Assembly: GCF_001697225.1 (NCBI RefSeq)
Contig: NZ_CP014671.1
Span: forward strand, 806,001 to 870,000
DNA length: 64,000 nt
Direction of reading: 5' to 3'
DNA from: Immundisolibacter cernigliae
GTDB taxonomy: Bacteria > Pseudomonadota > Gammaproteobacteria > Immundisolibacterales > Immundisolibacteraceae
The first letter of the stretch is position 1; each line of letters starts with the position of its first letter. The notes under the pieces are model-generated. The model worked only from the letters and a program-made list of their open reading frames with translations. It did no database searches and was not told the DNA's origin. Below are positions 10,877 through 45,290 of the stretch, piece after piece. A program made the translations under genes and the position numbers.

Positions 10877-11232
10877 AGCACGCTCCATGCGCCGAGCGCC
10901 TTTGCTGCCTCGACGAATCCCATGACGTGCCGGCGCCGATGGAATGAAAGGACGTCCCCGCCGCTGGCACCGCAGGCCATGCACTTGAAGCCGCCCGTTT
11001 CAGAGTGAACGCGCAAGCTCGGCCGTGTGTCCTGGTGGAACGGGCAAACCGCGTCACGCCATGCGCCGCGGCCGGATAGCCGAATTCCCTCGGCCGCGTA
11101 ATACCCCAGCGGCTCGGGCAGCAAGTCGCGCCGAAACTCGCCGCGCGAGTCGGATCGACCCCCGTAAAGCGCACTCCATTGATAAGCCCCGCCACGGCCA
11201 CCGCCGTGTGCGGGGTTTTTTCCGGCGGCCAT
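10873..11232 (-). CDS. CHC2 zinc-finger primase subunit
   Basis: The 119-residue protein carries a DnaG-type zinc ribbon: CPFHQDTRPSLRVH followed by FKCMACGASGGDVLSF (about residues 63-97). That is the template-binding module of primases; the catalytic Toprim part is encoded by the next gene. Its ATG shares one base with the upstream stop (TGATG) and its stop overlaps the next start (ATGA), so the three genes are tightly coupled. Confidence 0.85.
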   Translation of the reverse strand: MAAGKNPAHGGGRGGAYQWSALYGGRSDSRGEFRRDLLPEPLGYYAAEGIRLSGRGAWRDAVCPFHQDTRPSLRVHSETGGFKCMACGASGGDVLSFHRRRHVMGFVEAAKALGAWSVL

Positions 11233-30325: not shown

Positions 30326-31270
30326 ATGGCCGACATCGTTGCCGCCTTCGGGGTGAGTCACGCCGCGTTCATGGTGCGCGCCTGGGATCAGGCCAGCCCG
30401 GCCCAGCGCGCCGCCGTGGGCGACGGTTACAAGGCCATGGCCACCCGGCTGCGCGCGGCGCGCCCGGACGTGGTGCTGGTGGTGGCGTCGGACCATTTCC
30501 GCAGTTTTTTCCTGGACCACATGCCGGCGTTCTGTCTGGGCGTCGGCACGCGCAGCGTGGGCTGGGGCGATGGCGGCCTGCCGCGCTACGAACTTGCCGT
30601 GCACGACGGCCTGGCGCGCGGCCTGCTCGAAGGCCTGATCGCGCGCGGTCACGACCTGGCATTCGCGCGCAACCTGCCGCTCGACCACGCCTTCATGACG
30701 CCGGTGCACCTGCTGTTTCCGCAGGCGGACCTGCCCATCGTGCCGCTGTTCCAGAACTGCGTGGCCCCGCCGCTGCCCAGCGTGGGCCGCTGCCTGCAAC
30801 TGGGCGCTGCGCTGCGCAGCGTGCTGGCGGACCTCGAACCGGGCCTGCGCGTGGCCCTGATCGGCACCGGCGGGCTGTCGCACGAAGTGCCGCTGCATGA
30901 CTGGCGCACCCTGCCCGACGACGAAACCGGCCAGGCGTGGCTGGCGTTCATGTCCGCCGGGCGCGCCGGCGCGGACCCGGAAACCGGCAAGCGCATCGCC
31001 GCCGAGGTGGACCGCTGGGGTCGCGAGGGCCTGGGCCGCATCGATGAAGAATTCGACCGCGAACTGCTCGCCTGGATGCAGGCCGGAACCTACACGCGTC
31101 TCGCTGATCTGGACGCCGCCACCATCGCCCGGCGCGGCGGCAACGGCGGCCAGGAAATCCGCAACTGGGCCACGGTGATGGGCGCCGTGCCGGACACCCA
31201 CGGCGAGGTGCTGTTCTACGAAGCCGTGCCGCAGTGGCTGACCGGCGTGGCGGGCGTGGCCTTCGGGTGA
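30326..31270 (+). CDS. LigB-type (class III) extradiol dioxygenase, catalytic subunit
   Basis: A 314-residue non-heme Fe(II) dioxygenase of the protocatechuate 4,5-dioxygenase beta / DODA family. Expected metal ligands are present: GVSHAAF (His12), ASDHFRSF (second His) and QEIRNW (Glu, near residue 273). The catalytic His lies in GTGGLSHEV. The start follows AGGAGA. It differs from the 950-2008 protein, which has lost these ligands. A small alpha subunit (LigA type) is not seen; the preceding ORF is a deletion chimera. The substrate is probably a catecholic ring. Confidence 0.9.
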   Translation: MADIVAAFGVSHAAFMVRAWDQASPAQRAAVGDGYKAMATRLRAARPDVVLVVASDHFRSFFLDHMPAFCLGVGTRSVGWGDGGLPRYELAVHDGLARGLLEGLIARGHDLAFARNLPLDHAFMTPVHLLFPQADLPIVPLFQNCVAPPLPSVGRCLQLGAALRSVLADLEPGLRVALIGTGGLSHEVPLHDWRTLPDDETGQAWLAFMSAGRAGADPETGKRIAAEVDRWGREGLGRIDEEFDRELLAWMQAGTYTRLADLDAATIARRGGNGGQEIRNWATVMGAVPDTHGEVLFYEAVPQWLTGVAGVAFG

Positions 31271-32882
31271 GCGGCCCTCGGCGGTCCCGCCACCGAGGTA
31301 TCCGCGGCGCGGCTTGCCGGTCCGATTGGACCGACAGGCTTGCCTGCTCCTTGCTGCTATCGCGGCCGCGAAGTACTCGCGCGTCAGCCCGACGATCACC
31401 GCGGTAGTCGGCGGTGACGCCGCCGGTTTCGTCGCTGCGGGTCGGCGCGCCGTACGGATCATAGTCGTACGACGCCAGCACCTGGCCGTCGCCCATGCGC
31501 AGGTCGCGGATGGAGCCCAGGTGATCCTCGGCGTAGAAGGCAGCCACATCGCCCGTGGCCGACACGGCCAGCTCGCCCTCGTCGTAGTAGCGGCGGGTCA
31601 CCGTGTCGGCGCCGTCGCGCGCCTGGCAGATACGCTCGCCGCACCACAGGTACCGCGTTTCGGTGGCGGTGGTGCCGTCGGTTTCGACGATCGCGGTGCG
31701 CCGGCCGAAGGCGTCGTAGCGGAACGACGTGGATTGACCCGTGCCGGTATGGCCGATGCGCACCAGGCGTTGCTCGGCATCGTAGGCGTAGGTGCGTGTG
31801 CCGTCGTCGGTGAGGTTGCCGGCGGCGTCGTGGACGAAGGCGTGGGCGTTGCGCAGGTCGATTTGGTTCAGGGTGTTGTAGGTGCTGGTGGTAGCCGTGT
31901 TGGGGTGACGGTAGGTGTCACGTCCCGGCCGATTATTTGGCCTTCGATGAAACAGCTCCGGTTTTGAAGCGTACCAGTGCTGAAGCGCTTGAGCCGGAGT
32001 CTGGGCGTTCAGTGCCTTCTGCGGCAAGTGGTGGTTGTAGAGCGTGACATAGCGGTGCAGGGTCTGCTCCAGGTCCTCGCTGGACCTGAAGTGGTGCGTG
32101 CGCAGCAGGTCCGCGATGCGCCCGTTGAAGCGCTCGACCATGCCATTGGTCTGCGGGTGGCGCGGGGGCGTCAGACGGTGCTCGATGCCCAGTTCCTGGC
32201 ACAGGCGATCGAACTCATGCGTCCCGGTCGGGGCCCGCGCCCGGCTCCCGAACAGCCGGTCCGTGAACTCGGTGCCGTTGTCGGTGAGCAGGCGCGTGAT
32301 GCGCACCGGGCAGGCCGTGGCCAGGGCACTGAGGAAGGCGCGCGCCGAGCGCGCGCTCTTGTCGGCTTTCAGGGCCACGTAAACCCAGCGGGTGGCCCGA
32401 TCGATGGCCACGAACAGGAACCGGCGCCGGTCCTCGTCGGCCATCTGCGGCAGGTACTTCACGTCGACGTGCACAAAGCCGGGCACGTAGGTCTTGAAGG
32501 TCTTGCTGACCGCTTTGTCCGGCGCCGGGCGCAGGGCGCGCAGGTTGCCCACGCCGTGGCGGCGCAGGCAGCGGTCCAGCCCGGAGCGGGACACGTCCGG
32601 ACACAGGAACTCGCGCGTCACCGCCAGCAGGTCGTCCAGCGGCAGCAGCAGGGCCCGGCGCAGGTAGACCACGATCGCCTCCTGGCCGGGGGTCAACGTC
32701 GTTTGCAGGCGGTGCGCGGTGTGCGGCCGGTCGTAGACATCCGGGCGCCGCTTCCATTTGTAGATCGTCGGCTCGGTGACGCCAAAGCGGCGGGCCAGCA
32801 CCGCCACCGGCTCATCACTGGCCGCGATCTGCGCCCGCACGTGGGGCGTGGTGCGGGCTTGTTTGTGCAGTGCAATCAGCAT
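30948..32882 (-). CDS. IS481-family transposase (copy 2), frame running on into RHS fragment
   Basis: Residues 1-322 equal the copy 1 transposase, with the HTH and DDE residues intact. The frame has no stop inside the IS. Here the flanking CCTACC does not supply one, so the ORF continues for 322 more codons, first through the RHS remnant in its native frame, then as noise antisense to the dioxygenase gene. The functional transposase corresponds to about 31916-32882. Whether the readthrough protein is active is unknown. Confidence 0.8.
   Translation of the reverse strand: MLIALHKQARTTPHVRAQIAASDEPVAVLARRFGVTEPTIYKWKRRPDVYDRPHTAHRLQTTLTPGQEAIVVYLRRALLLPLDDLLAVTREFLCPDVSRSGLDRCLRRHGVGNLRALRPAPDKAVSKTFKTYVPGFVHVDVKYLPQMADEDRRRFLFVAIDRATRWVYVALKADKSARSARAFLSALATACPVRITRLLTDNGTEFTDRLFGSRARAPTGTHEFDRLCQELGIEHRLTPPRHPQTNGMVERFNGRIADLLRTHHFRSSEDLEQTLHRYVTLYNHHLPQKALNAQTPAQALQHWYASKPELFHRRPNNRPGRDTYRHPNTATTSTYNTLNQIDLRNAHAFVHDAAGNLTDDGTRTYAYDAEQRLVRIGHTGTGQSTSFRYDAFGRRTAIVETDGTTATETRYLWCGERICQARDGADTVTRRYYDEGELAVSATGDVAAFYAEDHLGSIRDLRMGDGQVLASYDYDPYGAPTRSDETGGVTADYRGDRRADARVLRGRDSSKEQASLSVQSDRQAAPRIPRWRDRRGPLTRRPRPPRRSATAARLRRTAPRRGCPARRPSPWPSCGFPGRRCRRAGRWWRRPDQRDACRFRPASRRAVRGRILHRCGPGPRDPSGPPRRRCACRFPGPRRRARRT
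31363..31401. repeat. 39-bp exact copy of the symporter gene 3' end
   Basis: Identical to 43952-43990, which encodes the symporter C-terminal stretch VIVGLTREYFAA. Here it abuts the broken end of an RHS fragment, exactly as RHS debris sits near the symporter tail at 43.6-43.9 kb. It records a past rearrangement between the two places. Confidence 0.8.
31402..31906 (-). pseudogene. RHS core fragment, truncated at both ends
   Basis: Minus-strand translation gives RHS core sequence (STYNTLNQIDLRNAHAF, YDAEQRLVRIGH, RYLWCGERICQARDG, YYDEGELAVSATGDVAAFYA, EDHLGSIRDLRMGDG, ending TGGVTADYRG). It lines up with 35892-36398 of the first orphan module at roughly 90-95% by eye. It lacks the final core (RDPIGE...NPxNxxDPxG) and any toxin tip. 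The left end joins the 39-bp symporter duplicate and the right end is cut by IS481 copy 2. Confidence 0.85.
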
Positions 32883-33065: not shown

Positions 33066-33542
33066 CTATTGGGATAACATCCAGCTATATGCAATATGAT
33101 GAGCAGAGTTGAGTACAAGGAATCTGTATCTGTTCACCAAGTCATTGCAAACATAGAATTCCACCGCTACGTCTGATCGCATCCATTCTATGGCCTCACG
33201 AACATCCAACCGCTTTGCTATGTCGCCGTTCGCTGGAAACCTGACATCATTTTTGGCGATTGCCTTACACCATTTACCTAATCCTTCCATTGGTTTCACG
33301 GACCGGAATCTCAACCATGTTTCGTTAGTGTCGATGTTATGAGTCTCAGATATCTCGAAGGAGTCATTCGGCAACCAAATCGGCAGCCATTTTCCCTCGC
33401 CGATTGCGTTAGCTTTTTTCGCCTCATTGTACGAGATGTATTGAGATGTCTTCGTTTCACTGGCAGCCATTACGCATAGAATAAATATCGTTACAAACAC
33501 GAATCCCGTCACACAAATACCAACAATCGTTCCGAGGCGCAT
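33066..33542 (-). CDS. Putative immunity protein for the serum-amyloid-A-like RHS tip
   Basis: The 158-residue product starts with one membrane segment (MRLGTIVGICVTGFVFVTIF), then an extracytoplasmic domain with LPIWLPNDSFEISETHNID and WLRF, ending with a cysteine-containing region. It begins 7 bases after the stop of the RHS tip, in the position of a cognate immunity gene. It is clearly more AT-rich than the surrounding chromosome, as is usual for imported toxin/immunity cassettes. No sure family name. An ORF extension upstream to 33725 overlaps the tip and is not used. Confidence 0.65.
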   Translation of the reverse strand: MRLGTIVGICVTGFVFVTIFILCVMAASETKTSQYISYNEAKKANAIGEGKWLPIWLPNDSFEISETHNIDTNETWLRFRSVKPMEGLGKWCKAIAKNDVRFPANGDIAKRLDVREAIEWMRSDVAVEFYVCNDLVNRYRFLVLNSAHHIAYSWMLSQ

Positions 33543-33549
33543 TTTTTTC

Positions 33550-34047
33550 TCAAAATTGCGGAGGGAAACTTCCACCCGGGCGATAAGGTGCACAAAGCAA
33601 GCGACAATCCCCCTTTGGATTTGAAGCTCCTTGATTTCGACCAAAGACGTTGACCAGCTGATCTGCAGCTGAATATCCCGGTGGATCGCCTTGAATATTC
33701 TGGTCGAACCATTCTCGAGTGTCACTCATCAGGCAGGCGGTAGCCTTCCCGCTTGGTCCTCTCTGAGCCGCTTCACAATTGGCCCGACAATGAAAATATT
33801 TATCTTGGTTCGTCCAGCCCGCATGACTGCCACCTACGCCGTAAGTTGCATCCATCATGTCGGCATAACTTTGGACAAAATCAGCGACCGCAGCAGGGTT
33901 TCCAGGAAACGTTCCTGGAGCCGGAGGACGGTATCCTGGTGTACCGCTGCCCATTAGGCCATTGGGGTCAACATAATTAATCGGACTATTCCCCACATAC
34001 GCATATAGATTAGCGTTCTCAAATCCGAAGTGCAACACAGTTTTCAA
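33550..34047 (-). CDS. Truncated RHS 3' module with serum amyloid A-like C-terminal domain
   Basis: The ORF opens in the IS30 end (TTG codon) and enters RHS sequence at NANLYAYVGNSPINYVDPNG, the end of an RHS core. After a Pro/Gly linker, residues 80-157 form a tip domain with DKYFHCRANCEAAQRGPSG, SDTREWFD, DQLVNVFGRNQG and YRPGG. These match in order the conserved blocks of vertebrate serum amyloid A (DKYFHARGNYDAAQRGPGG, SDxRE, ADQxANxxGR, YRPxGLP). Four extra cysteines distinguish it. The RHS body is missing, so this is a silent tip cassette unless recombined. Confidence 0.8.
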   Translation of the reverse strand: MKTVLHFGFENANLYAYVGNSPINYVDPNGLMGSGTPGYRPPAPGTFPGNPAAVADFVQSYADMMDATYGVGGSHAGWTNQDKYFHCRANCEAAQRGPSGKATACLMSDTREWFDQNIQGDPPGYSAADQLVNVFGRNQGASNPKGDCRLLCAPYRPGGSFPPQF

Positions 34048-35104
34048 TGAAGGCTGGGTGAAGGTTGATGAGCATTGGCCAGGGTCTGCGCGAAGACCTG
34101 CAGCGGCGTTTGCCAGTCGTGAATCGCCCGGGGTCGGGTCTTGAGGCTGTCGGCGATGGCATCGAGTTCGGCTTGCGTGTGGATCGACAGGTCAGTGCCC
34201 TTGGGCAAGTATTGGCGCAGCAGCCCGTTGGTGTTCTCGCAGGTGCCGCGCTGCCACGGGCTGTGGGGGTCGCAGAAGTAGACCTTCACGCCCGTCTGCG
34301 CGGCCAGCTCGGCGTGTCTGGCCATCTCCTTGCCCTGGTCATAGGTAAGGCTCTGGCGCAGCGGTGCGGCGATCGAATTCAGCTTGGCAGAAAAGCCTGC
34401 CAGTGCCGAGGCCGCCGTAGCATCACTCATCTTGGCCAACAGCACCAAGCGGCTGGTGCGCTCGACCAAGACGCCCACCGAAGATTGGTTGCCCGCGCCC
34501 TTGATGAAGTCGCCCTCCCAGTGGCCGGGCATCACCCGGTCGTTGACCTCGGGCGGACGCACGTGAATGCTGACCATCGCAGGAATCCGGCCGCGCCGAT
34601 CGGCGCCGCGCGTGCGCGGCAGGCGCGTGCTGCGACCGTGGCGCAGGCAGGCGATCAGCTGGCGGCGCAGTTCGCCACGCGGCTGGGCGTAGATCGCGGT
34701 GTAGATCGTTTCGTGGGACACGTGGCGTTGCGCCTCGTTGGGGTAGACGCGTTTGAGGGTAGCGGCAATCTGCTGCGGGAACCCTTTCCAGTCCAGTAAG
34801 GTGCGCACGATGCCCCAGGACACGGAGTGCGCACTGAGCTTGCGCGGTGGCCGGGTGGCGGCCCGCCGTGCGGTGCGCAGCCCATGGGCGGCTTCACTGC
34901 TGTAGCCCGTGTCGGGCGAGTGGTTGCGGGCCAACTCGCGGCTGATCGTGGAGGGCGAGCGATCCAGTGTGCGGGCCATGGCCCGCACACTGGCCCTCAG
35001 CCGGGCCATGCCGGCAATGACGACCCGCTCTTCAGGCCGCAGCTGCGTATACGAGGGTTGTTTTTCCATGGCAACACCTTACTCCGGGTGAGGTGTTGCA
35101 CTTC
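34027..35104 (-). mobile_element. IS30-family insertion sequence
   Basis: About 1078 bp bounded by the 12-bp inverted repeat GAAGTGCAACAC (34027 inward, and its complement ending at 35104). No target duplication is evident. The RHS body expected upstream of the tip is absent, which suggests an IS-adjacent deletion. The left end carries TTGAAA facing the RHS tip, a possible outward -35 element. Confidence 0.85.
34044..35069 (-). CDS. IS30-family transposase
   Basis: The 341-residue transposase has an N-terminal HTH (RASVRAMARTLDRSPSTISR) and the IS30 DDE core: GHWEGDFIKG, LTYDQGKEMA and SPWQRGTCENTNGLLRQYLPKGTDL. All are intact, so it is probably functional. Confidence 0.95.
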   Translation of the reverse strand: MEKQPSYTQLRPEERVVIAGMARLRASVRAMARTLDRSPSTISRELARNHSPDTGYSSEAAHGLRTARRAATRPPRKLSAHSVSWGIVRTLLDWKGFPQQIAATLKRVYPNEAQRHVSHETIYTAIYAQPRGELRRQLIACLRHGRSTRLPRTRGADRRGRIPAMVSIHVRPPEVNDRVMPGHWEGDFIKGAGNQSSVGVLVERTSRLVLLAKMSDATAASALAGFSAKLNSIAAPLRQSLTYDQGKEMARHAELAAQTGVKVYFCDPHSPWQRGTCENTNGLLRQYLPKGTDLSIHTQAELDAIADSLKTRPRAIHDWQTPLQVFAQTLANAHQPSPSLH

Positions 35105-35122: not shown

Positions 35123-35401
35123 CTATTCGGAAACTCGCCATTCAAAAATATGCTTAAAATCTTCGTAACAGTTAATACATATCCAATGATAGTTATCACT
35201 AGTTACGTACCCTTCCCTCTGAGCTTCTTCTTCCGTTCTAGATAGCTTCGTTCCGCAGAACTCGCAGTGATCATGGTCCCAGCCAGCGCGATAAGGTTCA
35301 TATAGCTTCCTATATAAGCTCACACCCTTCAGATATTTTTCCTGGCCCTGCAACCTCCAGTCCATCATGATCTTAATCCTATTTTGCCTCTGTCGTTCCA
35401 T
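35123..35401 (-). CDS. Zinc-ribbon-like immunity protein for orphan RHS tip
   Basis: I start at MERQRQNRIKIMMDWR (35401), 92 residues, overlapping the RHS tip stop by about 20 bases; an upstream extension overlaps the tip coding further. It contains HDHCEFCGTKLS and YHWICINCYEDFKHIFEW, giving a CxxC...CxxC zinc-ribbon pattern typical of a common small immunity family next to RHS and CDI toxins. It should neutralise the PIGPHWDY-type tip encoded just upstream. Confidence 0.75.
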   Translation of the reverse strand: MERQRQNRIKIMMDWRLQGQEKYLKGVSLYRKLYEPYRAGWDHDHCEFCGTKLSRTEEEAQREGYVTSDNYHWICINCYEDFKHIFEWRVSE

Positions 35402-37427
35402 CTGGAAATAGCCTATACCATTTTCCAGTCGCATCTCGATAATCCCAGTGTGGCCCAATAGGTGGCTCATGGCTTAAGTCCGGCCTTAAAATTTCTTTGG
35501 TAGTTGGATTGTAATAATTTCCCTCTTTACTGCCAGGCTGAGCACCTGACTTTCCTCGCCATTCATATTCTGGAGGGCATTGTTTCGGATTACTTCCGGG
35601 ATAAGGTGGCCGTGTGACCGGTGTCGGGAAGCTTGGCGCCTTGAGCCCTGGAGACGCTGGCAGTCTAGCGCCTCCGCCACCGCCGGGCGAATATATAGAC
35701 CAAGGAGGCGGATCATTAACAAGGCCCAGATCATCTACGAAGTTAATTGGATTATTTTCTACGTACGCATAAAGATTAATCCCACCCGCCTCCCCGATCG
35801 GATCCCGGGACACCCACCGCCCGTAAGCCGAACTGTACCCCCGGTAATTGGCCAAGTACAGCCCGCTGGGGGCGTGGTGGACCAGCCCGGCGTAGCGGTA
35901 GTCGGCAGTGACGCCGCCGGTTTCGTCGGTGCGCATGGGCGCGCCGTACGGGTCGTAGTCGTACGACGCCAGCACCTGGCCGTCGCCCATGCGCAGGTCG
36001 CGGATGGAGCCCAGGTGGTCCTCGGCGTAGAAAGTGGCCACATCGCCCGTGGCCGACACGGCCAGCTCGCCCTCGTCGTAGTAGCGGCGGATCACCGTGT
36101 CGGCACTGTCGCGCGCCTGGCACAGGCGCTCGCCGCACCACAGGTAGCGTGTTTCGGTAGCGGTGGTGTCATCGGTTTCGATGACCGCGGTGCGCCGGCC
36201 GAAGGCGTCGTAGCGGAATTCGGTGGATCGGCTGGTGCCGGTATAGCCGATGCGCAGCAGGCGTTGCTCGGCGTCGTAGGCGTAGGTGCGCGTGCCGTCG
36301 TCGGTGAGGTTGCCGGCGGCGGCGTGGACGAAGGCTTGGGCGTTGCGCAGGTCGATCTGGTTCAGGGTGTTGTAGGTGCTGCTCGCCGTGCCGGTTGGGG
36401 TCTGCTGGCCGAGCAGATTGTCGGCGGCGTCAAGATCGTAGGCGTACGTACCGCCGGGGCTGGCCAGCGCCTGGGTGAGGCGGTCGGCCGGGTCGTAGTG
36501 GTACTGCCAGGTGCGCGTATCAGTGCCGGCCACCGATTCGGTCTGGCTCAGGAGGCGGTTTTCGGGGTCGGTGAGGTAGGCATAACTGCGCGGCAGGGCA
36601 CTCGGGGCCGCGCCCGCGGCGCCGCCCAGGTGCGCGATGCCGGTCAGGCGGCGGTCGTGCAGGTTGTCGGCGTACTGCCAGGTGCTGACCAGCGTGGCCG
36701 CGCTGCGGCGCTGGATGCCGTAGGCGTGGCCGATGCCGGTGCAGGTGTTGTGCTCGGCGGCGTGCTCGTTGCGCACGCTTCCCGGACAGGCGGCGACGGC
36801 GTTGCCGACCACGCTGCGGCGGGTGCGCTGGTCGGTGGCGCCCAGATACTCGTAGGCGAACTCGGCCAGTGGCGTGGCGTGGCCGACCAGACGGCCGAGC
36901 ACGTCGTAGGCGTAGGTGTCCGCGACGGCATCGACGGTGCGGGTCTGTACGCGGCCCAGCGCGTCGTAGGTGTAGGCCAGCGTATCGTTGGCGAAGGGAC
37001 CGTCCTCCTGCGCCAGGCGCAGCGCGCCCGGGCTGCCGGCCGGGTGGTAGGTGTAGGCGGTGGTGCCGTCGCCGTCGATGCGCTGGCTCAGGCGCGGATA
37101 TGACGGGTCGTAGGTGAAGCGCAGCGGCGCGGTCGGTTCGAGCGCGCTTGCGTAATCGACGGCGCTGACGCGGTCGTCGCGCGCGTAGGCGTAATCGGTG
37201 CGCTGGCCGAGCGGGTCGGTGCGGGATTTCAGGCGTGCCGTGCTCGGCTCGTAGGCGTAGGTCTCGCGGCTGCCGTCGGCATACACGCGCGCCGTGGGCC
37301 GGCCCTGGAGGTCGCGCTCGAAGGTGGTGAGGTTGCCGTTGGGGTCGGTCAGGGTCTTGAGCACTCCGTCGGCGTAGTGGCCGTAGCGGGTGGTGCGCCC
37401 GGCCGGGTTGGTGGTCGAAAGGTTCAT
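35379..37427 (-). CDS. Orphan RHS module, 5'-truncated, with PIGPHWDY-type toxin tip
   Basis: A 682-residue ORF consisting of the 3' half of an RHS gene. It has YD repeats (YADGVLKTLTDPNGN onward), the hyperconserved core EDHLGSIRDLRMGDG and RDPIGEAGGINLYAY, and a C-terminal tip of about 110 residues ending GNYYNPTTKEILRPDLSH, PIGPHWDYRD, WYRLFPDG. This tip motif recurs in polymorphic toxins; I do not assert its enzymatic activity. There is no N-terminal signal or C39 domain and no RBS before ATG 37427, so it is probably unexpressed. About 750 bp are identical to the intact gene. Confidence 0.85.
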   Translation of the reverse strand: MNLSTTNPAGRTTRYGHYADGVLKTLTDPNGNLTTFERDLQGRPTARVYADGSRETYAYEPSTARLKSRTDPLGQRTDYAYARDDRVSAVDYASALEPTAPLRFTYDPSYPRLSQRIDGDGTTAYTYHPAGSPGALRLAQEDGPFANDTLAYTYDALGRVQTRTVDAVADTYAYDVLGRLVGHATPLAEFAYEYLGATDQRTRRSVVGNAVAACPGSVRNEHAAEHNTCTGIGHAYGIQRRSAATLVSTWQYADNLHDRRLTGIAHLGGAAGAAPSALPRSYAYLTDPENRLLSQTESVAGTDTRTWQYHYDPADRLTQALASPGGTYAYDLDAADNLLGQQTPTGTASSTYNTLNQIDLRNAQAFVHAAAGNLTDDGTRTYAYDAEQRLLRIGYTGTSRSTEFRYDAFGRRTAVIETDDTTATETRYLWCGERLCQARDSADTVIRRYYDEGELAVSATGDVATFYAEDHLGSIRDLRMGDGQVLASYDYDPYGAPMRTDETGGVTADYRYAGLVHHAPSGLYLANYRGYSSAYGRWVSRDPIGEAGGINLYAYVENNPINFVDDLGLVNDPPPWSIYSPGGGGGARLPASPGLKAPSFPTPVTRPPYPGSNPKQCPPEYEWRGKSGAQPGSKEGNYYNPTTKEILRPDLSHEPPIGPHWDYRDATGKWYRLFPDGTTEAK
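36629..37378. repeat. 750-bp direct repeat (copy in orphan RHS module)
   Basis: Matches 39348-40097 without a difference in the lines compared, with sharp divergence at both ends. Same orientation, offset 2719 bp. See the copy in the intact gene. Confidence 0.85.
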
Positions 37428-37615: not shown

Positions 37616-38014
37616 TCACGATTGTTTCGCGCGCTTTGAGTGTCGTGAATAGAAAAGGACGACTTGCCGAAAAAATCCATCAAACAATATAGGACTACTG
37701 ACGAAAATAGCTTGTATTAAACCGATCCCCAGTACCGACGACAGCGGCAAAGATGACACATCCCGATAGAACCAAGATTGATCGCCGAGCACGGCAGCAA
37801 TGAATAAAGCTAAGTAGACAACGGACAAGGGGACGACAGCCAAGAAAGGTAAGGCGAATCTTGATGAGACATACGCGGTCAACCACCAGCCAACGAGCAC
37901 GGCGTAAGCCGATGCGGCACTCATTCCCTCAGCAAGCGCCCTCGTCCCGAAGTAACCAATACCCCAACTAATAGCACCAATCAGTGCGCCCGCCAGAGTT
38001 CGCCGATCAATCAT
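37616..38014 (-). CDS. Membrane immunity protein for the L,D-transpeptidase-like RHS tip
   Basis: A 132-residue protein with about four membrane segments (LAGALIGAISWGIGYFG, AYAVLVGWWLTAYVSS, FLAVVPLSVVYLALFIAAVL, VLGIGLIQAIFVSSPIL). It overlaps the RHS stop by 4 bases (ATGA), so expression is coupled to the toxin. A membrane location suits protection against a periplasmic cell-wall toxin. No family name recognised. Confidence 0.7.
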   Translation of the reverse strand: MIDRRTLAGALIGAISWGIGYFGTRALAEGMSAASAYAVLVGWWLTAYVSSRFALPFLAVVPLSVVYLALFIAAVLGDQSWFYRDVSSLPLSSVLGIGLIQAIFVSSPILFDGFFRQVVLFYSRHSKRAKQS

Positions 38015-41000
38015 TTGACGACCACCGGCACTCGGCCATCGGGGTCGCCCAGAATGTCTTTCAAGAGTTGGTCAGTTTGACTATTTCCAAACGTGCCACC
38101 GCCAATGTCAATGCACCCTGCCGATCCGGAGTAGCGGCCACCATGGAAGAAGAATCCTGACCGACCATAGGTGTTCGTTCCCGGCTGGGGTATTAACGGC
38201 GCACGCCAGTCACCCCAATCTCCGCGCAGGTTTCGCAGGATGTCGCCGGCCCAACCAGGATTGGTTAGCTGATTTGTGTAAAGCGTGTAGTCGCCGCGGG
38301 GGATCGGACCTCTGTCTTTTGTTGATACATCGCACTCGCAGTTGGGTCGTCCTGACGATGCCGGCATGTTGTACGGGCCACGCCCTTGGACTTCCGGGTC
38401 GACGATAACGACCCCTCGCGCTGTGTCAAACGTAATTGACGTCAGGCCCAATGGATCAATTCGGCTAATCGGCCTATTCCCCACATACGCATACAAATTC
38501 ACCCCACCGGCCTCGCCGATCGGGTCGCGGGACATCCACCGCCCATTGTCGGCACTGTACGCCCGGTAGTGCGCCAGGTACAGGCTGCTGGGGGCGTGGT
38601 TGACCAACCCGGCGTAGCGGTAGTCCGCACGCACGCCGCCGGTTTCGCTGCTGTGGGTGGCGCCGTACGGATCGTAGTCGTACGACGCCAGCACCTGGCC
38701 GTCGCCCATGCGCAGGTCGCGGATGGAGCCTAGGTGATCCTCGGCGTAGAAGGCGGCCACGTCACCCGTGGCGCTGACGGCCAGCTCGCCCTCGTCGTAG
38801 TAGCGGCGGGTCACCGTGTCGGCGCTGTCGCGCGCCTGGCAGATGCGCTCGCCGCACCACAGGTAGCGTGTTTCGGTAGCGGTGGTGCCGTCGCTTTCGA
38901 TGACCGCCGTGCGCCGGCCGAAGGCATCGTAGCGGAATTCGCTGAATCGGCCGGTGCCGGTATAGCCGATGCGCACCAGGCGTTGCTCGGCATCCCAGGC
39001 GTAGGTGCGCGTGCCGTCGTCGGTGAGGTTGCCGGCGGCGTCGTGCATGACCGGCTGGCCGCTGTGCTGCACGATCTGGTTCAGGGTGTTGACGGTGCTG
39101 GTGGTACTGCTGGCCGGGGTCTGGATACTGAGCAGGTTGTCGGCAGGGTCGAGGTCGTAGGCGTACGCGCCGCCGGGGCTGGCCAGCGCCTGGGTGAGGC
39201 GGTCGGCCGGGTCGTAGCTGTACTGCCAGGTGCGCGTATCAGTGCCGGCCACCGACTCGGTCTGGCTCAGGAGGCGGTTCTGGGCGTCGGTGACGTAGGC
39301 ATAGCTGCGCGGCAGAGTGCTCGGGTCCGCGCCCGCGGCGGCGCCCGGGTGCGCGATGCCGGTCAGGCGGCGGTCGTGCAGGTTGTCGGCGTACTGCCAG
39401 GTGCTGACCAGCGTGGCCGCGCTGCGGCGCTGGATGCCGTAGGCGTGGCCGATGCCGGTGCAGGTGTTGTGCTCGGCGGCGTGCTCGTTGCGCACGCTTC
39501 CCGGACAGGCGGCGACGGCGTTGCCGACCACGCTGCGGCGGGTGCGCTGGTCGGTGGCGCCCAGATACTCGTAGGCGAACTCGGCCAGTGGCGTGGCGTG
39601 GCCGACCAGACGGCCGAGCACGTCGTAGGCGTAGGTGTCCGCGACGGCATCGACGGTGCGGGTCTGTACGCGGCCCAGCGCGTCGTAGGTGTAGGCCAGC
39701 GTATCGTTGGCGAAGGGACCGTCCTCCTGCGCCAGGCGCAGCGCGCCCGGGCTGCCGGCCGGGTGGTAGGTGTAGGCGGTGGTGCCGTCGCCGTCGATGC
39801 GCTGGCTCAGGCGCGGATATGACGGGTCGTAGGTGAAGCGCAGCGGCGCGGTCGGTTCGAGCGCGCTTGCGTAATCGACGGCGCTGACGCGGTCGTCGCG
39901 CGCGTAGGCGTAATCGGTGCGCTGGCCGAGCGGGTCGGTGCGGGATTTCAGGCGTGCCGTGCTCGGCTCGTAGGCGTAGGTCTCGCGGCTGCCGTCGGCA
40001 TACACGCGCGCCGTGGGCCGGCCCTGGAGGTCGCGCTCGAAGGTGGTGAGGTTGCCGTTGGGGTCGGTCAGGGTCTTGAGCACTCCGTCGGCGTAGTAGC
40101 CGTAGCGGGTGATACGCCCGGCCGGGTCGGTAACCGCAGTCAGGTTGCGCACGGCGTCGTAGGTGTAGGTGGTGGCGCGGCCGAGGCGATTGGTGCGGGT
40201 GGCCAGGTCCAGCTTGTCGTAGGTGGAGGTCTCGCTGGTGCCGTCGGGATAGGTGACCTGCGTCAGCCGGTCCAGGGCGTCATACGCGAAGGTGACGGTG
40301 TGGCCCTCGGAGTCGGTGCGGCTCGCCACCCGGCCGAAGGCGTCGTAGGTATAGGCCCATGCGGTGGTCCCGGCGGGGTTCACCTCGCGCGTGAGCTGGC
40401 CGAGCGGGTCGTACTCGTAGCGGGTGACTTCGCCCAGCGGGTTGGTGCGCGTGAGCAGTTGTCCGGCGGCGTTGTAGGTGTAGGTGGTGACCTGGCCGGC
40501 GGCGTCGCGCACCGTCAGCGGCCGGTGCTGGGCGTTCCAGGTGATCTCGGCCAGCGTCTGCTCGCCGCTGGGGGTGACCTGCGCGACGCGCGTCAGGTCG
40601 ATGCCGTTGGCGGCGTAGGTGTAGCGCGTCTCGCGCCCGACCGGGTCGACGGCGCGTAGGGGCTTGCCCATGGCGTTGTAGTCGTAGCGGTGCAGCTGGG
40701 TGCTGCCGTCGTCCAGCACGCGGGCGATAGCGGAGGGATAGTCGAGGGTGCCGGCCATGACATTGGAGTGCCAAGCATTCGATTCCTGGCCGGGATACGA
40801 GAACCATACCCGCCGCTCCTGGGGCTGTTTGAGGCTTTCCAGGGTGTACCAAGTCTTGCTGCCATCCGGAGAGTGCGTCCAGTGCTTGATGCGCGCCTTG
40901 GTGTAGTCCCCGGGCGACAGCGCTTGGGCATGCTTGTTCCAGTAGGCAGTGTTGCGCTCGTTGATATAGGCGTTGTACACGGATACGGTCAAACCGCTGG

Positions 41001-42969
41001 GCACCACTGATTCGGAAAATGGCACGCCCGGCGTGTCGTGACGATAAACCACCACCTCTTTTGCCCCCAACGGATCGGTAATTTCAAGACTGCGATACGT
41101 CCCGCTTTGGGCGGCTACAAACTGCGTGGTCCCATACGGCGTGGTCAGGGCGGTGATGAAGCTGCCGGCGTCGTAGGTGAAGCTCGACACCAGGCCCAGG
41201 ACGTCGGTGATACTGACCAGGCGGCCGCTGGCGTCGTAGGTGAGCTGCGCGCTGCGGCCAAACGGGTCGGTGACGCGCGTCAGCAGGAGTGGCTTGGCAG
41301 CGAGTTCGTAGTCGAAGGTGGTGACCCGGCCGGTGGCGTCGGTGAGTGTAGTCAGACGTAGCTGACTGTCGTAGGCCAGGGTGACGGCGTTGCCGGCCGG
41401 GTCGATGAGCTGGCTCAGGAACAGCCGGCGCGGGTAGGCGCTGGCGCCGCTCGACTGGGCGTAAACCTCCACGCTGCCGTCGGCCAGGCGACGCTCGTAG
41501 CTGACGGCGCCGCCCTGCGCGACCAGGCGCACCAGTTGCGCGGCGTCGCGCGTTTCGGCCGTGAACGCGCCGGTGGCGGCGCTGTAGCCGCCGTACAGCA
41601 CCGCCCCGCCACCAGCCACGGCGCGCAGCACGCTGGCGCCGGGCACTGCCGGGTCGTCCTGGATGTACGACAGCCAGTTCAGGGTCCACTTCGGACCGAG
41701 GTTGAAGTAGCCGAAGGTGGCCGGCTGGTAGGCCTCGCGCTGGTTGTAGGTGAAGGTGACCTCGGCCGACGGCCCGCGCGCCGGCCGGTAGCCGACCGGC
41801 GTGTCGCGCAGGTTCAGGCTCACCACCATGCCGTGCACGTCGTACTGGACCAAGCCCGGCGCAGTGCCCTTGTCGTTGCAGGTCTTGGGACACTCGGTCT
41901 CGTCCTTGGGAGTGGTGGCACCCGGCTCGCTGCTGCTGGTGTAGCCCATGCCGCGCGGGGTCTTGGCCTCGGCCAGGCTCACCGGCCGCCAGGGCTGGCC
42001 GGCGGCGGTCTCTTTCGGCACCAGAAAATAGCCGCTGGCCTCGGCGTCCAGCGCCCGGCGGCTGATCCGCAGGTCGGTGCCGAAGGTGGGGTCCTTCAGG
42101 TGCAGGCGGCCGCCCTCCTCACCGACGATGGCGGCAAAGTGCGTGACCTTCCAGTGCACGATGGAGGGGATGGGGATGGGCTCGCCCGGCTGGCGCTTGA
42201 CCAAGCGGTATTTCAGATCGGCCTTGTCGGCCAGGCGCGCCACCTGCGCCAGCGTGACGCCGCCCTGCGGCGAGCGGTAGGCGTCCAGAAAGGCCACCCG
42301 CTGGGCCTCGGCACCCTGCGCCAGCAGCAGGTTCTTCAGCGCCATCGGCCCGCACAGGTAGGCGACGCCGGGGTTGTTGCGCATCTGCCACAGGCCCTCT
42401 TTGGCGCCGGCCAGGGCTTCGGTGGCCGGACCGGTCAGGGCGCGCCCGCCGACCTCCTCGAACAGCTCTTCCAGACGGTCGGCATGGCCCAGCCGAGCGT
42501 GCATGCGGATCAGCTCGCCAACCGCCCGATCGATCAGCGGCCGGATGGCCGGATCGGTGACCGCCCGGCCCTGCGCCCAGGCTTGCTCCCAGGCGTCGAT
42601 GGCGCGCGAGAAATAGCCGTGGTGGTAGTAGGTCAGCCCCAGATTGGTGAGCAGCGCCACCCGCCAGGGGGAGTTGGGGTGGGTGGCCAGGTAACCTTCC
42701 AGGGCGCTGAGGTTTTCCGGTTGCGCCTGGCGCGCGTAGGCGTCGAGCGCGGTGCTCAGGTCCGCATCGTCGGCTGCCGTGGTCGGACCGCTGGGCAGCA
42801 GCAGCTCGGCAAAGCCGGATATTCGGCGGTCGGCGAGGGAAGGCACGGCGCGGTCGGCCGCCATGGCGGAACCTGCTCCCGCCAGTGCGAACATCAGCCC
42901 AAACAGCCACGTCCGCCGCCACGCCGTGTCGCCGCGCCCCCCAGCCGTCGCCCGCAACCGCTGTTCCAT
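38011..42969 (-). CDS. RHS polymorphic toxin: C39 peptidase - RHS barrel - L,D-transpeptidase-like tip
   Basis: The 1652-residue protein starts after GGGAGGAT. In order: signal peptide (about 20-38), TPR-like helices (90-175), a C39-type peptidase domain (200-320) with Cys206 (YLCGPMAL), His277 (KVTHFAAI) and Asp293 (LKDPTFG), RHS/YD repeats (about 380-1500) ending ISRIDPLG, and a tip (1509-1652). The tip contains GPIPRGDYTLY and GFFFHGG...GSAGCIDI, the His1609/Cys1619 pattern of DUF2778/Tlde1-like L,D-transpeptidases that damage peptidoglycan. No VgrG, PAAR or TcB partner is in the window. The C39 domain may process the protein or aid release. Confidence 0.88.
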   Translation of the reverse strand: MEQRLRATAGGRGDTAWRRTWLFGLMFALAGAGSAMAADRAVPSLADRRISGFAELLLPSGPTTAADDADLSTALDAYARQAQPENLSALEGYLATHPNSPWRVALLTNLGLTYYHHGYFSRAIDAWEQAWAQGRAVTDPAIRPLIDRAVGELIRMHARLGHADRLEELFEEVGGRALTGPATEALAGAKEGLWQMRNNPGVAYLCGPMALKNLLLAQGAEAQRVAFLDAYRSPQGGVTLAQVARLADKADLKYRLVKRQPGEPIPIPSIVHWKVTHFAAIVGEEGGRLHLKDPTFGTDLRISRRALDAEASGYFLVPKETAAGQPWRPVSLAEAKTPRGMGYTSSSEPGATTPKDETECPKTCNDKGTAPGLVQYDVHGMVVSLNLRDTPVGYRPARGPSAEVTFTYNQREAYQPATFGYFNLGPKWTLNWLSYIQDDPAVPGASVLRAVAGGGAVLYGGYSAATGAFTAETRDAAQLVRLVAQGGAVSYERRLADGSVEVYAQSSGASAYPRRLFLSQLIDPAGNAVTLAYDSQLRLTTLTDATGRVTTFDYELAAKPLLLTRVTDPFGRSAQLTYDASGRLVSITDVLGLVSSFTYDAGSFITALTTPYGTTQFVAAQSGTYRSLEITDPLGAKEVVVYRHDTPGVPFSESVVPSGLTVSVYNAYINERNTAYWNKHAQALSPGDYTKARIKHWTHSPDGSKTWYTLESLKQPQERRVWFSYPGQESNAWHSNVMAGTLDYPSAIARVLDDGSTQLHRYDYNAMGKPLRAVDPVGRETRYTYAANGIDLTRVAQVTPSGEQTLAEITWNAQHRPLTVRDAAGQVTTYTYNAAGQLLTRTNPLGEVTRYEYDPLGQLTREVNPAGTTAWAYTYDAFGRVASRTDSEGHTVTFAYDALDRLTQVTYPDGTSETSTYDKLDLATRTNRLGRATTYTYDAVRNLTAVTDPAGRITRYGYYADGVLKTLTDPNGNLTTFERDLQGRPTARVYADGSRETYAYEPSTARLKSRTDPLGQRTDYAYARDDRVSAVDYASALEPTAPLRFTYDPSYPRLSQRIDGDGTTAYTYHPAGSPGALRLAQEDGPFANDTLAYTYDALGRVQTRTVDAVADTYAYDVLGRLVGHATPLAEFAYEYLGATDQRTRRSVVGNAVAACPGSVRNEHAAEHNTCTGIGHAYGIQRRSAATLVSTWQYADNLHDRRLTGIAHPGAAAGADPSTLPRSYAYVTDAQNRLLSQTESVAGTDTRTWQYSYDPADRLTQALASPGGAYAYDLDPADNLLSIQTPASSTTSTVNTLNQIVQHSGQPVMHDAAGNLTDDGTRTYAWDAEQRLVRIGYTGTGRFSEFRYDAFGRRTAVIESDGTTATETRYLWCGERICQARDSADTVTRRYYDEGELAVSATGDVAAFYAEDHLGSIRDLRMGDGQVLASYDYDPYGATHSSETGGVRADYRYAGLVNHAPSSLYLAHYRAYSADNGRWMSRDPIGEAGGVNLYAYVGNRPISRIDPLGLTSITFDTARGVVIVDPEVQGRGPYNMPASSGRPNCECDVSTKDRGPIPRGDYTLYTNQLTNPGWAGDILRNLRGDWGDWRAPLIPQPGTNTYGRSGFFFHGGRYSGSAGCIDIGGGTFGNSQTDQLLKDILGDPDGRVPVVVK
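39348..40097. repeat. 750-bp direct repeat (copy in intact RHS gene)
   Basis: Corresponds to about 250 YD-repeat residues that are identical in the orphan module (36629-37378). Recombination between the copies would delete 2719 bp and put the orphan tip and its immunity gene on the intact RHS body, keeping frame. Confidence 0.85.
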
Positions 42970-43570: not shown

Positions 43571-43834
43571 CGCGCGTTTCCTGCGCCGCTGGCAGAGCCT
43601 CACCGCGCCACGGCAGGCAGGTTTCAGTGCCGGTGGCGCCGTCGCTTTCCAGAATCCGCCGGCGCCGGCCGTCGTAGCGAAAGCGGCAGGTGAGCGTGTT
43701 GGGCAGCCAGGCGACGACGGTGACCAGGCGGTTTGTGCATCGTGGCGGTAGGTCCACTGCGCGTCGGCAGCCGGGTTGCCGGCGGCGTCGTGGATCGGGG
43801 CCTGGTTGGTCAGGTTGTCGGCCGGATCGTTTTT
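43571..43834 (-). pseudogene. Decayed RHS fragment
   Basis: Two frames of the minus strand together give RHS-like sequence: DPADNLTNQAPIHDAAGNPA, then after a frame change FRYDGRRRRILESDGATGTE and WRGEALPAAQETR. These correspond to DPADNLL, MHDAAGNLTDDG, FRYDAFGRRTAVIESDG and WCGERICQARDS of the intact gene. It is frameshifted and much more diverged than the other modules. Confidence 0.7.
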
Positions 43835-43934: not shown

Positions 43935-45290
43935 TCAGCCCGACGCGCGCTCGGCCGCGAAGTACTCGCGCGTCAGCCCGACGATCACCGGGCTGAGCAG
44001 CAGTATCGAGATCAAATTGGGAATCGCCATCAGGGCGTTCAGGGTGTCGGCCACCAGCCAGGCGAAGTCCAGGCTGAGCACCGCCCCGAAGAACACCATC
44101 ACGGTCCATAGAATCCGAAACGGCTTCTCGGACACCGTGCCGACCAGGTATTCCCAGCATTTCTCGCCGTAATAACTCCAGCCAAGGATGGTGGTGAAGG
44201 CGAACAGGGACAGCGTTACCGCCAACAGGTATTTGCCGATGCCCGGCATCCCGGCCTCGAAGGCGGCGGAACTCAGAACCGCACCGGTTTCGCCGGAGGT
44301 CCAGACACCGCTGACCATGATCGCCAGGCCGGTCATGGTGCACACGATGAGGGTGTCGATGAAGGTGCCCATCATGCCGATCAGGCCGGAATAGACCGGG
44401 TTGCTGGTGGCACCTGCAGCCTGCGCGATGCCGGCCGTGCCCAGGCCGGCTTCATTGGAGAAGATGCCGCGCGCCACGCCTTTCTGGATCGCCATGATGA
44501 CCGTGGAACCCAGAAAGCCGCCGGTGGCCGCAGTCGGATTGAAGGCCTGCGTGAAGATGATGGCGAAGGCGCCCGGAATGCGGTCGGCGAACACATAGAG
44601 CACCACCCCCACGCAGCCCATGTACAGCAGGCACATGAACGGCACCAGGTATTCGGCGACACGCCCGATGCGCCTGATGCCGCCCAGCAACACGGCCCCC
44701 GTAATCACAGCCAAAGCGACGCCGGTCACCCAGGTCTGGATGCCGAAGGCGTTGTGCATCGCGCTGGAGATGCCGTTGGCCTGCACCATGTTGCCGATGC
44801 CAAACCCCGCCAGGCCGCCGAAAATCGCAAAGGACGTGCCCAGCCAGCGCCAGCGTTTGCCAAGCCCGTTCTTGATGGCGTACATGGGGCCGCCGGCGTG
44901 TTCGCCGTTGGCGTCCACCTCGCGGTATTTCACCGCCAGCACGACCTCGGCGTATTTGGTGGCCATGCCGACCAGGGCCGTCATCCACATCCAGAACAGC
45001 GCCCCCGGCCCGCCGACGGCGATGGCCGTGGCCACGCCGGCAATGTTGCCGGTGCCGATGGTTGCCGACAGGGCCGTCATCAGCGCCGCGAAAGGCGAAA
45101 TCTCGCCCTCGCCGGCGGCGCCCGGTTGGCGGCTTTTCCACACCATGCGAAATCCGTAACCGATCTTGAAGATCGGCATGAAGCCAAGCCGCAGCTGCAG
45201 ATACAGGCCCGTGCCCAGGATCAACACGATCATCGGTACGCCCCAGACGATGCCGTTCAGGGCGGTGAAAAATTCGTTCAGGTAGTGCAT
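43935..45290 (-). CDS. Alanine/glycine:cation symporter (AGCS) family protein
   Basis: A 451-residue transporter with about 11 membrane helices. The start at 45290 (MHYLNEFFTALNGIVWG) is the family's normal N-terminus. Signatures are GTGNIAGVATAIAVGGPGALFWMW, split here as GTGNIAGVATAIAVGG and PGALFWMWMTALVGMATKY, plus GIFSNEAGLGTAGIAQAA. Members import alanine or glycine with Na+ or H+. It ends in VIVGLTREYFAAERASG, of which 39 bp are duplicated at 31363. RHS debris lies just downstream. Confidence 0.94.
   Translation of the reverse strand: MHYLNEFFTALNGIVWGVPMIVLILGTGLYLQLRLGFMPIFKIGYGFRMVWKSRQPGAAGEGEISPFAALMTALSATIGTGNIAGVATAIAVGGPGALFWMWMTALVGMATKYAEVVLAVKYREVDANGEHAGGPMYAIKNGLGKRWRWLGTSFAIFGGLAGFGIGNMVQANGISSAMHNAFGIQTWVTGVALAVITGAVLLGGIRRIGRVAEYLVPFMCLLYMGCVGVVLYVFADRIPGAFAIIFTQAFNPTAATGGFLGSTVIMAIQKGVARGIFSNEAGLGTAGIAQAAGATSNPVYSGLIGMMGTFIDTLIVCTMTGLAIMVSGVWTSGETGAVLSSAAFEAGMPGIGKYLLAVTLSLFAFTTILGWSYYGEKCWEYLVGTVSEKPFRILWTVMVFFGAVLSLDFAWLVADTLNALMAIPNLISILLLSPVIVGLTREYFAAERASG

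What the first reader, a model, noticed from the sequence alone, without database searches (positions are those of the whole stretch)
38011..42969. RHS toxin with N-terminal C39 peptidase and L,D-transpeptidase-like tip
A complete C39 triad (Cys206, His277, Asp293) sits behind a signal peptide and TPR helices, ahead of the RHS barrel. Bacteriocin transporters use C39 domains to cut leader peptides, so this domain may self-process the RHS protein or release the tip. The tip has the His/Cys pattern of DUF2778/Tlde1 peptidoglycan toxins. A signal peptide instead of PAAR/VgrG linkage points to a delivery route other than classical T6SS.
Basis: partly seen in the sequence, partly recalled or inferred. 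Interest (0 to 1): 0.75.

Follow-up and report, generated by a model that had tools for sequence, protein, structure and literature searches.

The report
Secreted RHS toxin with C39 protease
A bacterial RHS toxin is made with a secretion signal and a built-in cysteine protease of the kind that normally trims bacteriocins, which probably cuts its own front part off; the same design recurs in at least two bacterial phyla and appears not to have been described.

Summary
ORF 42969..38011(-) is an intact 1652-aa RHS protein: signal peptide, TPR-like helices, C39 peptidase domain (C206/H277/D293), RHS cage with the canonical C-terminal autocleavage motif, and a Tlde1-type L,D-transpeptidase tip (H1609/C1619). 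Profile searches and AlphaFold/Foldseek (best matches: C39 protease 6mpz; Tlde1a 7uma) support both domains. A multi-span membrane protein, probably immunity, overlaps the stop codon by ATGA. Downstream lie orphan tip cassettes (Ntox37, SAA-type) and two transposases. The complete genome lacks the T6SS sheath gene but has a T2SS.

The TPR-C39-RHS architecture is a family found in Acidobacteriota (13 of 347 genomes) and sporadically in Gammaproteobacteria (Burkholderiales included). Directly behind the C39 fold is a conserved motif resembling the double-glycine leaders C39 enzymes cut: V330-S-x-x-E334-A-x-x-V-W-G340-x-G342, followed by a variable linker. C206, G340 and G342 are kept in 21/21, 20/21 and 19/21 active-type members. 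In one clade of seven, C206 is Ser and residue 342 is Cys or Ser.

Best explanation: a Sec/T2SS-exported polymorphic toxin whose C39 domain cuts itself and the TPR part off the RHS cage. This is inferred, not shown. Release of the tip by C39 is unlikely.

The parts
38011..42969 (-). RHS polymorphic toxin gene, 1652 aa, intact; GGAGG ribosome-binding site about 9 nt upstream of the ATG
   Evidence: Pfam/NCBIfam
42856..42969 (-). Signal peptide, residues 1-38 (RR ... LFGLMFALAGAG-SAMA/AD); Sec or Tat not resolved
   Evidence: sequence; hydrophobic segment in the same place in nearly all relatives
42373..42771 (-). TPR-like helical region, residues 67-199
   Evidence: AlphaFold model helices; TPR folds among Foldseek hits; Pfam TPR_2 E 0.016
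42007..42360 (-). C39 peptidase domain, residues 204-321; Cys206 at 42352-42354, His277 at 42139-42141, Asp293 at 42091-42093
   Evidence: Pfam PF03412 E 7.2e-7; Foldseek 6mpz E 1.6e-4; triad conserved
41944..41982 (-). Leader-like motif, residues 330-342 (VSLAEAKTPRGMG); predicted self-cleavage site at or next to Gly342
   Evidence: family alignments
41857..41943 (-). Variable, low-confidence linker between C39 module and RHS cage, residues 343-371
   Evidence: alignment conservation 0.26; pLDDT below 50 from about residue 346
38443..41856 (-). RHS/YD cage, residues 372-1509, ending in autocleavage motif DPIGEAGGVNLYAYVGNRPISRIDPLGL (1482-1509)
38014..38442 (-). Tlde1-type L,D-transpeptidase tip, residues 1510-1652; His1609 at 38143-38145, Cys1619 at 38113-38115
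   Evidence: Pfam PF10908; alignment with 17 viral-contig homologues, invariant H/G/S/G/C; Foldseek Tlde1a 7uma
37616..38014 (-). Candidate immunity protein, 132 aa, multi-span membrane protein, start overlaps the toxin stop (ATGA)
   Evidence: same arrangement behind four toxin homologues
35379..37427 (-). Orphan RHS cassette: core 92.6% identical to the main gene over 1669 bp (37412-35744), different tip (Ntox37, E 5e-9)
35123..35368 (-). Small ORF behind the Ntox37 tip, candidate immunity gene (no family match)
34044..35069 (-). IS30-type transposase inserted in the cassette array
   Evidence: Pfam rve + HTH_38
33550..34047 (-). Second orphan tip, SAA-type (PF00277 E 9e-23), core truncated at the transposase
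33066..33542 (-). ORF behind the SAA-type tip, candidate immunity gene with one N-terminal hydrophobic segment
31401..31893 (-). RHS core fragment (88% identical to the main core), behind a second transposase

Best explanation
This is an antibacterial RHS polymorphic toxin exported through the general pathway (signal peptide, then probably the type II secretion system), not by T6SS. Its N-terminal TPR-C39 module is a self-processing pro-region: after export the C39 domain binds the leader-like stretch directly behind itself (residues 330-342) and cuts at or next to Gly342, which separates the TPR-C39 part from the RHS cage. The cage carries the L,D-transpeptidase tip and releases it by the usual RHS aspartyl self-cleavage near Leu1509. 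The tip then attacks peptidoglycan in the target periplasm. The producer, whose own periplasm the toxin must cross, is protected by the cage and by the overlapping membrane immunity protein. Shown: the domains, predicted folds, conserved residues, family distribution, absence of a T6SS sheath gene and presence of T2SS genes. Inferred: export route, cleavage, site and order of events, toxicity and immunity.
For: Catalytic residues in 21 active-type members from several phyla: C206 21/21, H277 21/21, D293 19/21. Leader-like motif directly behind the fold: E334 20/21, G340 20/21, G342 19/21 (one Ala, one shifted AGD), with V330, A335 and V/I338, against a linker of mean conservation 0.26. C39 enzymes recognise hydrophobics at -12, -7 and -4 (consensus also has E at -8) before GG/GA/GS, bound as a short helix (PMC6363468); the model has a short helix at residues 332-335. 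A clade of seven (support 98/99) has Ser at 206 and also Cys or Ser at 342 in 7/7, with His and Asp kept. L085 has a signal peptide but no module, and its mature chain would begin close to the equivalent place. No T6SS-type N-terminal cleavage motif PVxxxxGE, but the C-terminal motif is intact. In T6SS Rhs proteins, N-terminal cleavage occurs and matters for toxicity (PMC8636562, PMC11461821). No VipB gene; GspD and GspL over cut-off with GspC/GspI matches beside them. T2SS-dependent RHS bacteriocin precedent: Bcn-A (PMC7259588).
Against: Residue 341 is usually Lys or Arg, and the register fits the canonical leader one residue off if Gly342 is P1. The oxyanion Gln is Pro200, although PMC6363468 itself doubts that Gln's role. 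Conservation of the motif could be structural: it forms part of the confidently modelled region. The Cys-to-Ser clade is a single evolutionary event. In the window itself the hydrophobic at 338 is Pro and W339 is Arg. No experiment shows cleavage.
Confidence: 0.5

Rival explanations
1. The C39 domain is a peptide-binding or structural domain rather than a working protease. It anchors the toxin on the surface or guides secretion, and the motif behind it is its structural C-terminal edge.
For: Zhang et al. 2012 (PMC3482391) describe inactive N-terminal transglutaminase-like domains after a signal peptide in RHS toxins and propose anchoring. A whole clade of seven here has Ser in place of Cys. 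The oxyanion Gln is absent.
Against: C206 and H277 are kept in 21/21 divergent members and D293 in 19/21, unlike the degenerate transglutaminase-like domains. Even the Ser clade keeps His and Asp in 7/7. Residue 342 changes together with residue 206.
Confidence: 0.25
2. The C39 domain is an active protease that works in trans, on a partner protein or in the target cell, rather than on itself.
For: C39-like domains occur as C-terminal toxins (Tox-PLC39 in PMC3482391), and CDI papain-like toxins are among the Foldseek hits. Some Acidobacteriota carry two C39-RHS genes in tandem, and in several loci a large RCC1-repeat protein lies immediately upstream.
Against: It is N-terminal and constant, not in the variable tip position. 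The window locus has no such partner. The leader-like motif is in cis.
Confidence: 0.13
3. The C39 domain releases the C-terminal tip from the cage (one of the first reader's two suggestions).
For: It is the only recognisable classical protease domain in the chain.
Against: The tip boundary has the complete RHS aspartyl-autocleavage motif (PMC8636562). No leader-like sequence is evident at the tip boundary. C39 lies at the N-terminal end of the cage.
Confidence: 0.04
4. The locus is a decaying remnant and the protein is not used.
For: Degenerate RHS fragments, a truncated SAA-tip cassette and two transposases surround it; two sampled same-genus genomes lack the N-terminal module.
Against: The main gene is intact over 4959 bp with all catalytic residues and a coupled downstream gene; orphan cassettes are usual around RHS loci.
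Confidence: 0.08

Closest known systems
T6SS Rhs effectors (Photorhabdus laumondii Rhs1, Acinetobacter Tse15)
   Same: Tripartite plan: N-terminal part, RHS cage, encaged C-terminal toxin; C-terminal DPxGL aspartyl autocleavage; a cleavage between N-terminal part and cage (PMC8636562, PMC11461821)
   Different: N-terminal part is signal peptide + TPR + C39, with no PAAR hit; N-terminal cleavage motif PVxxxxGE absent; no VipB gene in the genome
RHS toxins with N-terminal inactive transglutaminase domain (Zhang et al. 2012, PMC3482391)
   Same: Signal peptide, papain-like-superfamily domain, then RHS repeats and a polymorphic tip
   Different: Here a C39 domain with the full C-H-D triad and a conserved leader-like motif behind it, plus TPR-like helices
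C39 peptidase domains of bacteriocin ABC exporters (LahT, PCAT1, ComA)
   Same: Pfam family, predicted fold, triad; leader-like motif
   Different: Not fused to an ABC transporter; oxyanion Gln replaced by Pro; presumed substrate in cis; motif G-x-G instead of G-G
Tlde1a, T6SS L,D-transpeptidase effector of Salmonella (PMC9638812)
   Same: Pfam domain, predicted fold, catalytic His/Cys pattern
   Different: Tip of an RHS protein; shorter His-to-Cys spacing (HGGxxxGSAGC); no T6SS in the genome; multi-span membrane immunity candidate
Bcn-A of Xanthomonas perforans (PMC7259588)
   Same: RHS-family antibacterial protein; activity lost in a T2SS (xpsD) mutant
   Different: No C39 domain seen in the passages of that paper I read; different genes around it

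Membership tests
RHS polymorphic toxin | YD/RHS repeats with Rhs-associated core and PxxxxDPxGL boundary | tested here: met
RHS polymorphic toxin | Variable tip, adjacent small gene, orphan tip cassettes with near-identical core | tested here: met
   92.6% identical core over 1669 bp with Ntox37 tip
RHS polymorphic toxin | Toxicity neutralised by the neighbouring immunity gene | not testable with these tools
   only arrangement and membrane spans seen
Peptidase C39 | Pfam PF03412 above gathering cut-off | tested here: met
   29.5 bits against 22; relatives L036-L038 above cut-off, L039 at 19.1 bits just below, contig-edge fragment L040 no hit
Peptidase C39 | Papain-like C39 fold | tested here: met
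   AlphaFold + Foldseek 6mpz, E 1.6e-4
Peptidase C39 | Catalytic Cys-His-Asp | tested here: met
   C206, H277, D293
Peptidase C39 | Oxyanion Gln at C-6 | tested here: not met
   Pro200; Gln's role questioned in PMC6363468. So described as a divergent C39-type domain, not a canonical exporter C39
Peptidase C39 | Cuts after a double-glycine-type leader | tested here: inconclusive
   leader-like motif in cis with G-x-G
C39 exporter (PCAT/AMS) | C39 fused to ABC transporter membrane and ATPase domains | tested here: not met
   no ABC transporter domains in the chain
Tlde1 / L,D-transpeptidase | Tlde1_dom above cut-off and matching fold | tested here: met
   31.2 bits against 30.1; 7uma E 2.3e-5
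Tlde1 / L,D-transpeptidase | Catalytic His and Cys conserved with homologues | tested here: met
   invariant in 18 sequences
Tlde1 / L,D-transpeptidase | L,D-carboxypeptidase / transpeptidase activity | not testable with these tools
   needs assay
T6SS Rhs effector | PAAR/VgrG N-terminus | tested here: not met
   no such domain in Pfam or NCBIfam scans
T6SS Rhs effector | T6SS in the genome | tested here: not met
   no VipB PF05943; E. coli control found
RHS toxin with inactive N-terminal transglutaminase domain | Loss of catalytic triad residues | tested here: not met
   triad intact here; a related clade has Ser for Cys
T2SS-exported RHS toxin (Bcn-A-like) | Signal peptide and T2SS genes present | tested here: met
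T2SS-exported RHS toxin (Bcn-A-like) | Secretion depends on the T2SS | not testable with these tools
   needs a gspD knockout

The most novel reading that the evidence does not exclude
A family of exported RHS toxins uses a bacteriocin-type C39 protease as a cis-acting pro-region that cuts at a built-in leader mimic. One branch has changed both halves together: nucleophile Cys to Ser and cut-site Gly to Cys/Ser, with His and Asp kept. That branch would be a natural serine-type C39 or a switched-off lock.
Probability: 0.4. Interest if true: 0.75.

Novelty: new variant of a known kind. Interest (0 to 1): 0.6.

Why it matters
How RHS toxins without a T6SS leave Gram-negative cells, and how they are matured, is largely open. 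A C39 protease moved from ABC exporters onto a signal-peptide RHS toxin, with its presumed cut site in the same chain, gives a directly testable processing step (one Cys mutant, one Gly mutant). It also offers a marker for finding T2SS-route RHS toxins in soil and groundwater bacteria.

Tried and rejected
T6SS delivery: rejected. C39 as tip-releasing protease: unlikely. Known name for the architecture: the only paper in the library holding both 'C39' and 'RHS repeat' is Zhang 2012, which lists C39 as a toxin domain, not as this module. Viral contigs with the N-terminal module: none. Tip and immunity on plasmids: only distant stand-alone Tlde1-domain proteins; no immunity homologue. RHS N-terminal part in 318 class genomes: only the window genome and G098. 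Conserved partner gene: only an RCC1-repeat protein in some Acidobacteriota, not in the window. Defence-system library: no match. Active-site distances in the model: coordinates not available.

Full report
OBSERVATION. The ORF is at the stated coordinates, 1652 aa, uninterrupted, in a closed 3.24-Mb genome where the N-terminal module is single-copy. Pfam places Peptidase_C39 at 206-321 and Tlde1_dom at 1548-1622, both over their curated cut-offs, with 14 RHS repeats between; NCBIfam places the Rhs-associated core at 1432-1509.

FOLDS. An AlphaFold model of residues 66-416, built on six relatives, is confident up to about residue 345 (mean pLDDT 75.1 overall; blocks up to there 76-95). Its best PDB matches are the LahT C39 protease with bound leader (6mpz); PCAT1 and a C39-like domain follow among the next hits. 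A profile search of PDB sequences also finds 6mpz and ComA. A model of the tip on 18 sequences (mean pLDDT 79.4) matches Tlde1a first, and every hit with a good score is an L,D-transpeptidase-fold enzyme.

FAMILY. A single-sequence search of 369 genomes of the class found one other convincing carrier, G098, at 57% identity. A scan of GTDB contigs added Aquabacterium, a Pseudomonadales MAG, a Blastocatellia MAG, and fragments in Methyloprofundus and Terriglobia. With a profile, 13 of 347 genomes of the phylum of the Blastocatellia MAG (Acidobacteriota) have it, some with two or three copies, but only one of 349 in the order of Aquabacterium has the full module; 7 of 159 genomes in one further order match the profile, one of them weakly over the C39 part only. 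The tree puts the window with G098, G1012, Aquabacterium and Pseudomonadales sequences in a well-supported group (100/99). The patchy occurrence in Proteobacteria suggests horizontal transfer (inference).

THE LEADER-LIKE MOTIF. Behind the last C39 strand lies W327-x-x-V330-S-x-x-E334-A-x-x-V/I-W-G340-x-G342, then a linker variable in length and letters, then the RHS start. In 21 active-type members E334 is kept in 20, G340 in 20 and G342 in 19 (one Ala; one with the small pair shifted), while the linker averages 0.26 conservation. C39 proteases bind leaders through hydrophobics at -12, -7 and -4, as a short helix, before Gly-Gly/Ala/Ser (PMC6363468). The motif has hydrophobics with this spacing and the Glu, and a helical turn in the model, but Lys/Arg at 341 means the match is one residue off if Gly342 is P1; in the window itself positions 338-339 are Pro-Arg instead of the usual Val-Trp. 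A supported clade of seven (98/99) carries Ser at 206 in all seven, keeps His277 and Asp293 in all seven, and has Cys (5) or Ser (2) at 342. The pair changed together once and then stayed; this is a single event, so it supports rather than proves coupling. A relative without the module (L085) has a signal peptide directly before the RHS start.

DELIVERY. T6SS sheath protein VipB is absent from the complete genome while the E. coli control is found. Two secretins exist: PilQ and GspD; the GspD gene lies among genes matching gspC, gspI and gspL. Nearly all family members have a hydrophobic leader (exception L037). An RHS bacteriocin whose activity requires the T2SS is known (Bcn-A, PMC7259588). 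Sec/T2SS export is therefore the most economical reading, not shown here.

TIP, IMMUNITY AND CASSETTES. The tip boundary has the complete RHS autocleavage motif. The next gene overlaps the stop (ATGA) and encodes a multi-span membrane protein; four homologous stand-alone toxins (L087, L088, L089, L094) are also followed at once by small membrane proteins without evident sequence similarity to it, as expected for immunity to a periplasmic enzyme. Downstream, a core copy 92.6% identical over 1669 bp carries an Ntox37 tip, and a further remnant carries an SAA-type tip cut by an IS30-type transposase. Such copies allow tip exchange by recombination, as is well known for RHS loci (own knowledge).

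CONCLUSION. What it works like: an RHS toxin with N-terminal self-processing, comparable in logic to T6SS Rhs proteins, where cleavage between N-terminal part and cage matters for toxicity (PMC8636562, PMC11461821), but with a C39 protease in place of the built-in Asp/Glu mechanism. What it is a member of: RHS polymorphic toxins (met); C39-type domains in a divergent, transporter-free form; Tlde1-type tips by profile and fold. T6SS effector membership is rejected. Prior work lists C39 as a toxin domain and inactive transglutaminase domains at this N-terminal position (PMC3482391); I found no description of an active-triad C39 module there, within an open-access library only.

Noticed in passing
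L078, L082, L083, L117-L120 (C39-RHS relatives): One clade has Ser for the catalytic Cys, with His and Asp kept in 7/7, and Cys or Ser for Gly at the predicted cut site; possibly a serine-type or locked C39 domain.
   Followed up: partly
L075, L078, L082, L083, L117, L118: A very large protein lies immediately upstream of the C39-RHS gene, in L075 and L082 only a few bases apart; the two scanned (L075, L118) are RCC1-repeat plus CHB_HEX_C/Fn3-associated proteins and the others are similar to them by BLAST.
   Followed up: partly
L073, L079, L080: Two C39-RHS genes in tandem, a shorter one before a longer one; some long ones end without a tip, and a further large ORF follows in L079-L081 (Ig-like and RHS sequence in L081).
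   Followed up: partly
window 33550-34047: RHS tip with a serum-amyloid-A domain (PF00277, E 9e-23); a 2025 paper on the lipocone superfamily (PMC12419801) mentions SAA together with Rhs and toxin domains.
   Followed up: partly
window 43952-43990 and 31363-31401: A perfect 39-bp direct repeat, part of the end of the Na/alanine symporter gene, brackets the RHS region.
   Followed up: partly
window 43583-43794: Degenerate RHS core fragment upstream of the toxin gene.
   Followed up: partly
window 30948-32882: Second transposase (integrase core) fused in frame to an RHS core fragment.
   Followed up: no
L036, about position 11135: The closest relative's RHS gene has a frame break inside the core; the core continues in another frame.
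   Followed up: no
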